In this document: piece after piece, positions 37,549-41,404 of the stretch
Layout: each line of letters begins with the position of its first letter
How positions within the stretch are numbered: position 1 is the first letter of the stretch
From: Deltaproteobacteria bacterium
Lineage (GTDB): Bacteria; Desulfobacterota; Dissulfuribacteria; Dissulfuribacterales; QOAL01
Assembly: GCA_027067775.1 (NCBI GenBank)
Contig: JAMOVK010000058.1
Span: 1-45,876, forward strand
DNA length: 45,876 bases
Direction of reading: 5' to 3'
Position numbers and translations under genes: made by a program
The notes under the pieces: model-generated
Told to the model about the DNA's origin: nothing
The model's database searches: none
Seen by the model: only the letters and a program-made list of their open reading frames with translations

Positions 37549-38487
37549 ATGTCTATAGATGGCAGCAAGCTTACAATTGTCGGAGCTGGAGCCGTAGGCA
37601 CTTCTGCTGCCCACTGGGCAGTAAGCAGAAAGGTTGCCAAGGAGATAGTGTTACTGGACGTGGTTGAAGGTATCCCTCAGGGAAAGGCCTTGGATATCAG
37701 CCAAAGTGCCCCCCTTTGCGGCTATCATGGTTCTGTCATTGGTACGTGCAACTATAAGGACACTGCCGGTTCAGACGTTGTGATAGTTACGGCAGGGCTT
37801 GCCAGAAAGCCAGGGATGAGCAGGGATGATCTGCTTGCCAAAAATGTGGAGATAGTAAAACAGGTTACGGAAAACATCGTTGCCAACAGTCCAGATGCAG
37901 TGATTATTGTGGTGACAAATCCAATAGACGCTATGGTCTATACGGTTTTTAAGGTATCTGGCTTTCCCAAAAATCGTGTGGTCGGTATGGCCGGGGTGCT
38001 TGATTCTGCCAGATACCGGACTTTTCTTGCCCAGGCTCTGGGTGTGGCTCCCAAGGATGTGACTGCTCTTGTAATGGGTATACATGGTGACAACATGCTT
38101 CCCCTTACAAGGCTTGCAAGCGTTGGTGGGGTTCCTGTTGAGGAGCTTTTGTCCAAAGAGGAGCTGGCAAAGATAGTAAAACGCACTCAGACAGGTGGAG
38201 GGGAGATCGTACAGCACCTTAAGACCGGTAGCGCATTCACGACCCCGGGTCTTTGTGCCATTGAGATGGCTCAAGCCATACTCTTTGATGAAAAGAGGGT
38301 GCTGCCTTGTGCTGCCTATCTTGAAGGTGAATTTGACATAAACGGGGTCTTCCTTGGGGTTCCGGTAGTCCTTGGAAAAGAGGGTGTAGAAAGGATTGTC
38401 CAGTTCAGTCTGACCCAGGAGGAGAGGCTAGCTCTTGAAAAGTCTGTTGAGGCGGTGAAACGCCAGGTTGATGCAACCGGCCTTTAA
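37549..38487 (+). CDS. mdh: Malate dehydrogenase
   Basis: TIVGAGAVGTSAAHW, VTNPIDAMVYTVFKVSGFPKNRVVGMAGVLDSARYR, GIHGDNMLPL. Confidence 0.95.
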   Translation: MSIDGSKLTIVGAGAVGTSAAHWAVSRKVAKEIVLLDVVEGIPQGKALDISQSAPLCGYHGSVIGTCNYKDTAGSDVVIVTAGLARKPGMSRDDLLAKNVEIVKQVTENIVANSPDAVIIVVTNPIDAMVYTVFKVSGFPKNRVVGMAGVLDSARYRTFLAQALGVAPKDVTALVMGIHGDNMLPLTRLASVGGVPVEELLSKEELAKIVKRTQTGGGEIVQHLKTGSAFTTPGLCAIEMAQAILFDEKRVLPCAAYLEGEFDINGVFLGVPVVLGKEGVERIVQFSLTQEERLALEKSVEAVKRQVDATGL

Positions 38488-39698
38488 TGAACAGTTTCAA
38501 AAAGTTTTCTAGATCTATAGGGTTAATAGTCCTGTCTGTGGGGCTTTTAACCCTTTTTTTTGCATGTACCCATGTGAAAGAAAAAGGAGGTGTTGTTTTA
38601 AGGAGGGTCTCTTTGGAAGAGGTCCCTGTAGGTTCGTGTCAAGAGGTCTCAGAAATAATAAAGGCTCTTGATAACTCCATATCAATACTTGAAAAAAGCC
38701 GTGTAAATTCTCTTTCCGTTTTTGATAAAAAGATAGATAAACAGCTCCTTGTTAAAAGTCTTTTTTCTCTAAAGGAACGTCTCAGTCAGGGTGAATCACT
38801 TAAATTCGCCATCAAAGATCTATTTTTTATCTATGAGCTTGTAGAAGATGGGAAGAGGGGTAACCTCCTTGTGACAGGTTACTACCAACCCAAGTTTGAA
38901 GGTGCTGAAAATAGGGATGAGACCTTTAACGTGCCTGTACTTTCCGTTCCACTGGACCTTGTTGGTGCCAGGTTAAGGGATTTTGGAAAAGGACTTCCTA
39001 ACATTACACTCTGGGGCAGGGTAGAGGGGCAGAGATTTCTTCCATATTATGAAAGAAAAGAGATAGAGCGTAGGCTCAAACAAAGACCAGAACAATATCC
39101 TGTTCTCTGCTGGCTCAAAAGCCCGGTGGATCTTCTTGAACTCCAGATTCAAGGCTCTGGTATAATACAACTGGGGAATGAAGAACGCTTTATCCATTAC
39201 GCTGCAAGCAACGGTCTTCCGTATACCAGCCTGGGGAAGATACTTTTGAAAAAGGGGATATTGTCACTGGAGGACCTGGACTGGCAGTCCATAAAGAGAT
39301 GGGCTGAAATACATCCTGAAAGATTTGACCAGCTCCTGTCTAAAAACAAGAGATATGTGTTTTTCAAGTGGGAGCGGGAGGGGCCTATTGGATGTTTTGG
39401 AAAGGTGCTTGTTCCAGGTGTATCTGCCGCGTTTGACAGAAAGATTTTCCCGGCAGGTTTTCCCTTTATGGTGACTCTTGTGATTCCAGAAACTAGACAG
39501 ATGCCCGAATGGATGACCTGTAAACCGGGTGGAGAGCAAGTGGGACTTTTTGTGGCAAACCATGACACTGGTAGCGCTATTAAAGGCCCTTTCCGAATGG
39601 ATCTTTATACAGGAACAGGGGCAAAGGCAGGCTTTCTTGCAGGACATCTAAAAAACAGGGCAAGGATGTTTGTGCTTATTCCAAAGGCTCTACCTTAG
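38487..39698 (+). CDS. mltA: Membrane-bound lytic murein transglycosylase A (MltA)
   Basis: VTGYYQPKFEGA, LLELQIQGSGIIQL, ANHDTGSAIKGPFRMDLYTGTGAKAG. Confidence 0.94.
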   Translation: MNSFKKFSRSIGLIVLSVGLLTLFFACTHVKEKGGVVLRRVSLEEVPVGSCQEVSEIIKALDNSISILEKSRVNSLSVFDKKIDKQLLVKSLFSLKERLSQGESLKFAIKDLFFIYELVEDGKRGNLLVTGYYQPKFEGAENRDETFNVPVLSVPLDLVGARLRDFGKGLPNITLWGRVEGQRFLPYYERKEIERRLKQRPEQYPVLCWLKSPVDLLELQIQGSGIIQLGNEERFIHYAASNGLPYTSLGKILLKKGILSLEDLDWQSIKRWAEIHPERFDQLLSKNKRYVFFKWEREGPIGCFGKVLVPGVSAAFDRKIFPAGFPFMVTLVIPETRQMPEWMTCKPGGEQVGLFVANHDTGSAIKGPFRMDLYTGTGAKAGFLAGHLKNRARMFVLIPKALP

Positions 39699-39855
39699 AG
39701 CAAAGGCTACCGAAGATTTTCTGTTAGTGTTTTCTTTTATTGCTTTTTATTACTTTGGCAAAAAATAGCCGACTAGTTATTTTTTCAGAATGCAATCCTT
39801 CTGCATGGGAGATGATTTAAGATGGAAGCGGCTGGTAATGCCTCCATCCAGGTAT

Positions 39856-40052
39856 AAGAGGAAGGGCAATGAAGGACTTTGATTAGACTGGAAAGCAGGG
39901 CCAAGAGCTTCTATGGCTTGCTTCGCTGAAACGCTCCAAAGCCGCTCGCTCATGCTCGCTAAATGGAGGTTTCAGCCGCTTCGCTTCACCAAGAATCTCT
40001 AGACCCTGTTCCCAAATGTCTAATCAAACCCCTATCCTTGCCCTATCCTTTT
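39856..40052 (+). repeat. Inverted-repeat hairpin element, copy A
   Basis: ~197-nt imperfect palindrome including TTTGATTAGAC/GTCTAATCAAA and GCTGAAAC(G)CTCCA/TGGAGGTTTCAGC; ends match copy B. Confidence 0.8.
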
Positions 40053-40406
40053 GAGTCCGTTAAGGCCGTCTTAAGCCAATAAATTGATATGAGTGTTTTG
40101 GGGCTAATTCCAGCCCACCTTCTGTAAATTGCGGAATGCTTCAGTTTTTAGAAAAATGGCCTTGCGGCCTTTCTTGATGAATGTGTTGTGCCAGAAAGTG
40201 CTTCACCTCAAAAATTCGCTCAGTTCATCTTGGAGCTTAGCAATTACGGTAATCATCCATTTTCTCTTGTTTGAATGATTTAAAAAAATCACATCACCCT
40301 TTACTGCCATGCACCATAAATGAATATAACTTTGCTAGTTATGCAGGATTAGTAATAGGTGTTTTGGAAAGAGTTTGTCTTGTAGGACAGAAGGTCTGGA
40401 TTAGTA

Positions 40407-40597
40407 GCAGATTTGTCAGGATGGTGGCTTTTCATCAGGCGTTGGGAACAGGGCCTAGAGATTCTTGGCGAAGGCGGAGCAAAAGAAATCCACTCAAGCC
40501 GAGCGAAGCGAGGGAATTTGGATTTCTGCGAAGCCGAGCCCTAAAAGCTCTTGGCCCTGCTTTCCTGCCTGTGAAAGTCACCGCCTGTCAAATCTGC
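40407..40597 (-). repeat. Inverted-repeat hairpin element, copy B (opposite orientation)
   Basis: ~191-nt imperfect palindrome; reverse complement shares GGAAAGCAGGGCCAAGAGCTT (21/21) and CCAAGAATCTCTAGRCCCTGTTCCCAA (26/27) with copy A. Confidence 0.8.
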
Positions 40598-40654
40598 ATT
40601 CCTTTGTTCATGCAGTTTTATGTTGAAAATGATTCAGTCCTGTCTGGTCAAGAT

Positions 40655-41404
40655 CTACTGGATCATGCGTCTTTTAAGAAGAAATATGGCAATACAGGAT
40701 GATATCAAGGCAGAGCCCAATATTATGGACACTTCTATGGTAAAAGAGGCGAGACCGTCAAATCTGCCGTAACAAAGCATCCTGGAAAGGTCTACAACAC
40801 TTGAAAGGGGTAAGGCCATTAGCACGTGTCTCAGCGAAGGGGCAACGGCCTTTAGGGAGAAAAAGATCCCAGAAAAGAGAAAGAATGGAGTAATTACCAG
40901 TGATGTAAAATAGTTGAAAAAATCATAGTTGGTGGCCACTGCTGTCATGATTAGACCAAGGGCCGCAAAGATTATACCTTCAATAAAGAGAAGGGGTATC
41001 ATGCCAATAGCCCATACAGAGGGCTCAACACCAAAAAGGGGAAGGGTTGCCAGCATGATGAATCCCGCAACAAGTCCCTTTGTTGCCCCCCATAGGATTT
41101 CACCAAGGGCCAACTCCACAATATTTATAGGGGTCATGAGAATGGCCTCAAATGTTCCCTGGGTTGATAGTCTGGTGTAAGAACCGTAAGTGGCCTCAAA
41201 GGCAGCCGAGTACATTACTGCAGAGGCAACAAGGCCAGGTGCTATGAACTGTAAATAGCTCATTCCTTCTATCTCTGGTACAGATTTGCCAAGGCCAAAG
41301 CCAAAGGCCAGCAGGAATAGAAATGGTTGACCAAGGTTGCCAATCAGGCTTGCCTGCAGGTGTTTCAGCCATACTTTGAAGTTTCTGTACCAAACTCTTA
41401 GCAT
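40655..41404 (-). CDS. ABC-2 type transporter permease
   Basis: ABC2_membrane features (LIGNLGQPFLFLLAFGFGLG..., SSVVDLSRMLCYG); follows the ATPase gene. Confidence 0.9.
   Translation of the reverse strand: MLRVWYRNFKVWLKHLQASLIGNLGQPFLFLLAFGFGLGKSVPEIEGMSYLQFIAPGLVASAVMYSAAFEATYGSYTRLSTQGTFEAILMTPINIVELALGEILWGATKGLVAGFIMLATLPLFGVEPSVWAIGMIPLLFIEGIIFAALGLIMTAVATNYDFFNYFTSLVITPFFLFSGIFFSLKAVAPSLRHVLMALPLSSVVDLSRMLCYGRFDGLASFTIEVSIILGSALISSCIAIFLLKRRMIQ

What the first reader, a model, noticed from the sequence alone, without database searches (positions are those of the whole stretch)
39856..40597. Pair of inverted ~195-bp hairpin elements with conserved end blocks and variable centres
Seen directly: copy A (39856-40052) and the reverse complement of copy B (40407-40597) share GGAAAGCAGGGCCAAGAGCTT exactly (39890-39910 and 40545-40565). 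They also share CCAAGAATCTCTAG[A/G]CCCTGTTCCCAA (39989-40015 and 40442-40468) with one mismatch. The ~78-nt centre between these blocks differs clearly, and the core lengths are 125 and 124 nt. The two ends of each copy are also inverted repeats of each other. No transposase is visible. Inference: a MITE/REP-like non-autonomous element family or a structured RNA family; I do not recognise it as a named family.
Basis: partly seen in the sequence, partly recalled or inferred. Interest (0 to 1): 0.8.

Follow-up and report, generated by a model that had tools for sequence, protein, structure and literature searches.

The report
Mobile hairpin repeat with swappable ends
The two matching hairpins are old copies of a small family of jumping DNA that carries no genes; relatives across one bacterial phylum keep the same unpaired motifs while their paired arms and outer ends have been replaced, so the hairpin itself seems to matter to something not yet known.

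Summary
A (39863-40044) and B (40407-40597, inverted) are two subtypes of one dispersed hairpin family: 23 covariance-model hits in this genome. Here they often form an A-spacer-B composite (seven aligned loci); four congeners have only about 20-60 bp where the window has 957 bp. The sister genus g5 carries the same core (at least 150 and 136 copies in two genomes) as ~226-bp MITEs ending GTAACTGTTCAGCG / CGCTGAATAGATAC. Of 47 g5 copies, 24 have perfect 8-bp target duplications (shuffled 0.55), and one has a clean empty site in a sister species. Ends and duplication length match the ISBst12 group of IS66. Ten more Desulfobacterota genomes (9 genera, 7 families) carry the core, with various outer ends. 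Across ten lineages/subtypes the motifs TCTAAGGCTYGCTTC, AACTCGCC-TTCG-GGCTCAAACA and CGCTTCGCCAAGA are 74-89% identical on average, while stem arms are near background yet still pair. In the window's own genome no duplication or partner transposase was found, so these are read as decayed copies. Verdict: MITE-like family supported (transposition shown in g5, inferred here); RAYT/REP not supported; no Rfam match. Unexplained: why the core is conserved across different transposon ends.

The parts
39733..39862 (+). Left module: ~130-bp repeated sequence that precedes hairpin A in many copies; left limit approximate
   Evidence: shared with C35, C44, C149, C154, C25, C50, C48, C56
39863..40044 (+). 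Hairpin A, ends AGGGCAATGAAGG ... CCTATCCTTGCCCT
   Evidence: folds end to end; solitary copies diverge from each other just outside these ends
39890..40013 (+). Core of A matched by covariance model R1 (138.6 bits)
39909..39926 (+). Conserved 5' motif in A, TTCTATGGCTTGCTTCGC (consensus TTCTAAGGCTYGCTTCGC)
   Evidence: conserved across genera and families
39982..39994 (+). Conserved 3' motif in A, CGCTTCACCAAGA (consensus CGCTTCGCCAAGA)
40045..40406 (+). Spacer between A and B; related to the ~340-bp spacer of the other composites but the most diverged of them
40407..40597 (-). Hairpin B, inverted relative to A, ends GCAGATTTGTCAGG ... CCTGTCAAATCTGC
40444..40565 (-). Core of B matched by R1 (121.6 bits)
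40598..40612 (+). Conserved tail of B, ATTCCTTTGTTCATG; ATTCCTT is shared by most B copies, the rest only by some
   Evidence: alignment

Best explanation
A and B are decayed copies of a non-autonomous DNA transposon (MITE-like) family whose body is one long imperfect hairpin. In the sister genus g5 the element is ~226 bp, ends in GTAACTGTTCAGCG / CGCTGAATAGATAC and makes 8-bp target duplications (shown), so it was most likely moved in trans by an ISBst12-group (IS66-family) DDE transposase (inferred). In the window's genome A and B became paired head to head around a spacer, and copies of that composite lie at several unrelated places (shown; how it spread is inferred). Centres and arms change by exchange between copies and by correction of one palindrome arm from the other (inferred from C149, C44, C72, C25), which keeps the stem paired while its sequence drifts. 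The unpaired motifs of the core are under a separate constraint of unknown cause.
For: 23 R1 hits in the genome, 9 and 1 in two congeners; solitary A copies with unrelated flanks on both sides; seven composites with different neighbours; orthologous gap of about 20-60 bp in four congeners against 957 bp. g5: 24 of 47 copies with perfect 8-bp duplications, 35 with at least 7/8, shuffled 0.55 and 0.85, no perfect match at any other length from 4 to 12; empty site in G017 with one CTGGTTTA against two in G012. ISBst12-type element L315: single 471-aa transposase, ends GTAACTATTCAGCA (12/14 to the g5 end), 8/8 duplication; published ISDge4 (ISBst12 group): GTAACTGCTCAGCA and an 8-bp repeat (PMC12898284). 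C149 has B outer arms with an A-type centre; arm changes shared within copies.
Against: No consistent target duplication for A, B or composites in the window's genome, and their ends differ from the g5 ends. No ISBst12-type transposase in any carrier genome searched; the single IS66 gene of G012 has GTAAGCGCTT ends. Conservation of unpaired motifs across families is not explained by transposition alone. The congeners are distant (46-61% identity for the neighbouring protein), so the short sites show absence, not an exact empty target.
Confidence: 0.8

Rival explanations
1. The core is a structured RNA, or a hairpin bound by a host protein, with its own function; MITEs are only the vehicles that carry it.
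For: Across ten lineages/subtypes motifs and loop are 74-89% identical while stem arms are near background yet pair (own -15.0, swapped -5.8 kcal/mol, 0 of 90 swaps reach the own mean). Different outer ends in different lineages.
Against: No Rfam match even at E 0.5; no strand bias relative to neighbouring genes in g5 (count); copies lie in tandem, divergent and convergent contexts; several copies have lost the core; arm correction within palindromes can keep stems paired without function.
Confidence: 0.25
2. A REP/REPIN-like family mobilised by a RAYT (Y1) transposase acting on the folded single strand.
For: Hairpins in inverted pairs with conserved mismatches; one Y1 gene each in G000 and G001.
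Against: The Y1 gene is an ordinary IS200-like gene, and no similarity beyond chance was found between its locus and the element; congener G006 carries a copy without any Y1 gene found; 8-bp duplications in g5 point to a DDE enzyme.
Confidence: 0.03
3. A single local inverted duplication, or a bidirectional terminator of the two convergent genes.
For: The window copy and C35 lie between convergent genes.
Against: Copies at many unrelated loci; other copies lie between tandem or divergent genes (in g5 31 tandem, 7 divergent, 3 convergent).
Confidence: 0.02

Closest known systems
ISBst12 group of the IS66 family (e.g. ISDge4, PMC12898284; L315 here) and MITEs derived from it
   Same: g5 ends GTAACTGTTCAGCG / GTATCTATTCAGCG match GTAACTATTCAGCA and GTAACTGCTCAGCA; 8-bp target duplication; no coding capacity as expected of a MITE
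   Different: No similarity to the interior of the autonomous elements; no partner gene in the carrier genomes; the window's own copies lack these ends
Chunjie MITE of Geobacter uraniireducens (cited in PMC10969869)
   Same: Similar size (178-235 bp), dozens of mostly intergenic copies, conserved ends and direct repeats, same broad group of bacteria
   Different: Sequence could not be compared (paper not held)
Unnamed palindromic multicopy sequences of Geobacter genomes (PMC2700814, PMC2996986)
   Same: Intergenic palindromic multicopy families in the same broad group of bacteria
   Different: Alignments are in supplements that could not be read; identity unknown
REP/REPIN with RAYT
   Same: Inverted pairs of hairpins with conserved mismatches
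   Different: No RAYT found, much longer hairpins, 8-bp duplications in relatives
ERIC and Correia-type palindromic MITEs
   Same: Imperfect palindrome of 100-200 bp, intergenic, many copies (recalled, and PMC10969869)
   Different: Not compared by sequence here; other bacterial groups

Membership tests
MITE (general) | Short (<500 bp), non-coding, many dispersed copies | tested here: met
   A ~182 bp, B ~191 bp, g5 median 226 bp; copy numbers. The composite (~750-880 bp) exceeds the usual size
MITE (general) | Terminal inverted repeats | tested here: met
   g5: GTAACTGTTCAGCG / CGCTGAATAGATAC; A and B are palindromic over their length
MITE (general) | Target-site duplication in the sister-genus homologues | tested here: met
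   24 of 47 perfect 8 bp, shuffled 0.55; empty site
MITE (general) | Target-site duplication for the window's own copies | tested here: not met
   No consistent repeat around A, B or composites; duplications decay with age, so this lowers but does not remove the assignment
ISBst12/IS66-derived MITE (g5 elements) | Ends like the autonomous element, 8-bp duplication | tested here: met
   12/14 identity to L315, L318 and L321 ends, 8-bp duplication; ISDge4 ends
ISBst12/IS66-derived MITE (g5 elements) | Autonomous partner in the same genome | tested here: not met
   PF03050: none in G000, G001, G006, G011, G015, G017; one in G012 with other ends. Draft assemblies may miss it
ISBst12/IS66-derived MITE (window copies) | GTAAC-type ends and 8-bp duplication | tested here: not met
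   Ends AGGGCAAGG and GCAGATT; no duplication. The window copies are related to the g5 elements by their core only
REP/RAYT | RAYT-type Y1 transposase associated with the repeats | tested here: not met
   Only an IS200-like Y1 gene
Known Rfam RNA family | Match to an Rfam model | tested here: not met
Chunjie | Sequence homology to Chunjie-1 | not testable with these tools
   Paper not held

The most novel reading that the evidence does not exclude
One hairpin core, defined by conserved unpaired motifs (TCTAAGGCTYGCTTC, AACTCGCC-TTCG-GGCTCAAACA, CGCTTCGCCAAGA) and freely varying but still paired stems, is carried through a phylum by MITEs with different terminal repeats. It is kept because the folded strand (single-stranded DNA or RNA) is recognised by a host or replication factor, i.e. 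it is a portable module that helps quite different transposon ends to multiply.
Probability: 0.3. Interest if true: 0.75.

Novelty: new variant of a known kind. Interest (0 to 1): 0.52.

Why it matters
Bacterial MITEs are usually defined by their ends, with the interior taken as filler. Here the interior is the conserved part: motifs stay while stems and ends are replaced. If confirmed, this is a concrete, testable case of selection on a MITE interior, and it suggests how a repeat family can outlive its transposase by changing ends. It would also let these repeats, which lie at contig ends in several drafts here, be annotated across Desulfobacterota.

Tried and rejected
RAYT/Y1 partner: only an IS200-like gene. 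IS66 partner in the same genome: none with matching ends. Rfam at gathering (window) and at E 0.5 (15 loci): nothing. Target duplications for the window-genome A, B and composites: none consistent. Viral contigs: two exact 23-mers gave 0 hits; a looser 15-mer gave 75 contigs, none an R1 match. Plasmids and phages with an element from G118: none. A Patescibacteria genome has two copies of a similar hairpin (R1 27.9 and 24.5 bits); because the search pattern selected one arm and a palindrome supplies the other, homology versus convergence is unresolved and it is not counted. Literature search for the motif strings: no relevant paper. Local inverted duplication and terminator readings rejected on copy distribution and gene context. 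The scan for ends and duplications in the other Desulfobacterota lineages covered only GTA-type ends and found none; by eye their ends differ (GGCTGTTGCC.., GAGACCTTTG.., GAGATCTCTG..), without statistics.

Full report
Observation. The two hairpins exist as described. Hairpin A is best bounded at 39863-40044 and B at 40407-40597. The stretches shared by A and the reverse complement of B are 34 nt (88%) and 32 nt (94%). Together with a left module and a spacer they fill most of the 957-bp gap between the gene ending at 39698 (it aligns to orthologues in seven congeners) and the ABC permease gene ending at 40655.

Copies in the genome. DNA searches of the 2.4-Mb draft and a covariance model R1 built from 23 cores find 23 hits here, 9 in congener G001 and 1 in G006. 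Solitary A copies have unrelated sequence on both sides, beginning just outside AGGGCAAGG / CCTTGCCCT. A and B are often joined: seven composites (C58 = window, C72, C19, C154, C35, C98, C149) share A or its remains, a spacer and B or its remains in the same order; those examined have different neighbours. The window's spacer is the most diverged. A left module also recurs. Several copies have lost a hairpin core: C35 lacks A, C98 lacks most of B, C48 lacks both. At the orthologous site four congeners have only about 20-60 bp.

How the centres vary. A and B centres share one layout. In C149 the B position has B outer arms but an A-type centre nearly identical to the A centre of the same composite, so centres are exchanged between copies. 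Arms also track each other copy by copy: the left arm of C44 is the inverted consensus right arm, C72 and C25 share changes on both arms, and the G001 copy L093 is 91% symmetric over 43 nt. I infer correction of one palindrome arm from the other; selection for pairing would look the same.

Mobility. In genus g5 the same core sits in a ~226-bp element, with at least 150 and 136 hits in two genomes, scoring being capped. By contig numbers and lengths these genomes correspond to the Deltaproteobacteria MAGs WGBG01 (G012) and JALWJV01 (G017), and G001 to JAMOUE01 (matching is mine). The ends are GTAACTGTTCAGCG and CGCTGAATAGATAC. Among 47 copies 24 have perfect 8-bp duplications and 35 have at least 7/8; no other length from 4 to 12 gives a perfect match; shuffled expectations are 0.55 and 0.85. 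One copy in G012 has a clean empty site in G017: CTGGTTTA once against twice, within an 838-bp ungapped-length match at 96%. This shows transposition in g5.

Which transposase. IS66 proteins of the ISBst12 type in other members of the phylum carry ends such as GTAACTATTCAGCA, 12 of 14 letters equal to the g5 end, with an 8-bp duplication in L315. The published ISBst12-group element ISDge4 has GTAACTGCTCAGCA and an 8-bp repeat (PMC12898284). No such gene was found in the carrier genomes searched; the single IS66 gene of G012 has GTAAGCGCTT ends. So the partner is inferred. In the window's own genome no duplication was found and the ends differ, so these copies are read as old.

The conserved core. 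R1 over 247 Desulfobacterota genomes finds ten further carriers in 9 genera and 7 families at E below 1e-4. Their cores are plainly alike: TCTAAGGCTYGCTTC, a stem, AACTCGCC-TTCG-GGCTCAAACA, the stem's complement, CGCTTCGCCAAGA. Outer ends differ: GGCTGTTGCCCAAATCC../..GGGCAACAGCC in several genera, GAGACCTTTGAAAATTG.. in G221, and in G207 both GAGATCTCTGAAAA..-type and GTTGC-type ends within one genome. Over ten lineages/subtypes motif 1, loop and motif 2 average 83, 74 and 89% identity; stem arms 46 and 48%, near the shuffled 40 and 45%. Yet own arms pair at -15.0 kcal/mol on average against -5.8 for arms swapped between lineages, and none of 90 swaps reaches the own mean. Segments were delimited by hand, and the copies were found with a model of this family, so motif conservation is somewhat favoured; the contrast with the stems of the same copies is not explained by that.

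Interpretation. Shown: a dispersed hairpin family in the window's genome; a transposing MITE with the same core in g5; a core shared across families with different ends. Inferred: the ISBst12-group transposase in g5; decay and composite formation in the window's genome; arm correction and centre exchange. Open: why the unpaired motifs persist. An RNA role has no direct support (no Rfam match; no strand bias by my count) but is not excluded; recognition of the folded strand by a host factor is equally possible.

Known or new. MITEs and palindromic repeats are a known kind. Geobacter genome papers mention unnamed palindromic multicopy families, and a review describes the Chunjie MITE; their sequences could not be compared here. 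I therefore file this as a new variant of a known kind, not as a new kind.

Noticed in passing
L213/L328/L329 (Patescibacteria MAG JAHIST01): Two copies of a similar long hairpin with TTCTAAGGCTCGC and GGCTCGCCTTGAA in its arms; R1 27.9 and 24.5 bits. Homologous or convergent, unresolved.
   Followed up: partly
G000 C142 start, C44 end, C45 start, C98 end, C100 end: Contigs end in or very near copies of this element, so the repeat probably breaks the assembly and the copy number here is a lower bound.
   Followed up: no
L088, L089, L090 (G000 C157, C56, C35 about 1283-1340): Copies of only the outer right end of B without the core; in C56 the left module is followed directly by that end, as if the whole middle had been deleted.
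   Followed up: partly
L093, upstream of the B copy (G001): A different palindromic repeat, TGTCATTGCGAGG ... GCGATGACAGG, lies near the B copy.
   Followed up: no
L132 (G012 C189) and L178 (G017 C77): The same insertion with the same flanks and duplication (AAAGCCAG) occurs in both g5 species, so some insertions predate their split.
   Followed up: no
L108 (G000 C23:13913-14266) and L109 (G001): Near-identical IS200-like elements in the window's genome and a congener.
   Followed up: partly
L179 (G012 C132): An IS66 element of the three-gene type, ends GTAAGCGCTT, with an 8-bp duplication TATTTTAC; its transposase gene has an in-frame stop.
   Followed up: partly
window 40271-40702: A 143-codon reading frame runs through hairpin B; it starts with TTG in the spacer and is probably not a gene.
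   Followed up: no
L104 (G007): The congener's match to the window gene at 38487-39698 contains one in-frame TGA.
   Followed up: no
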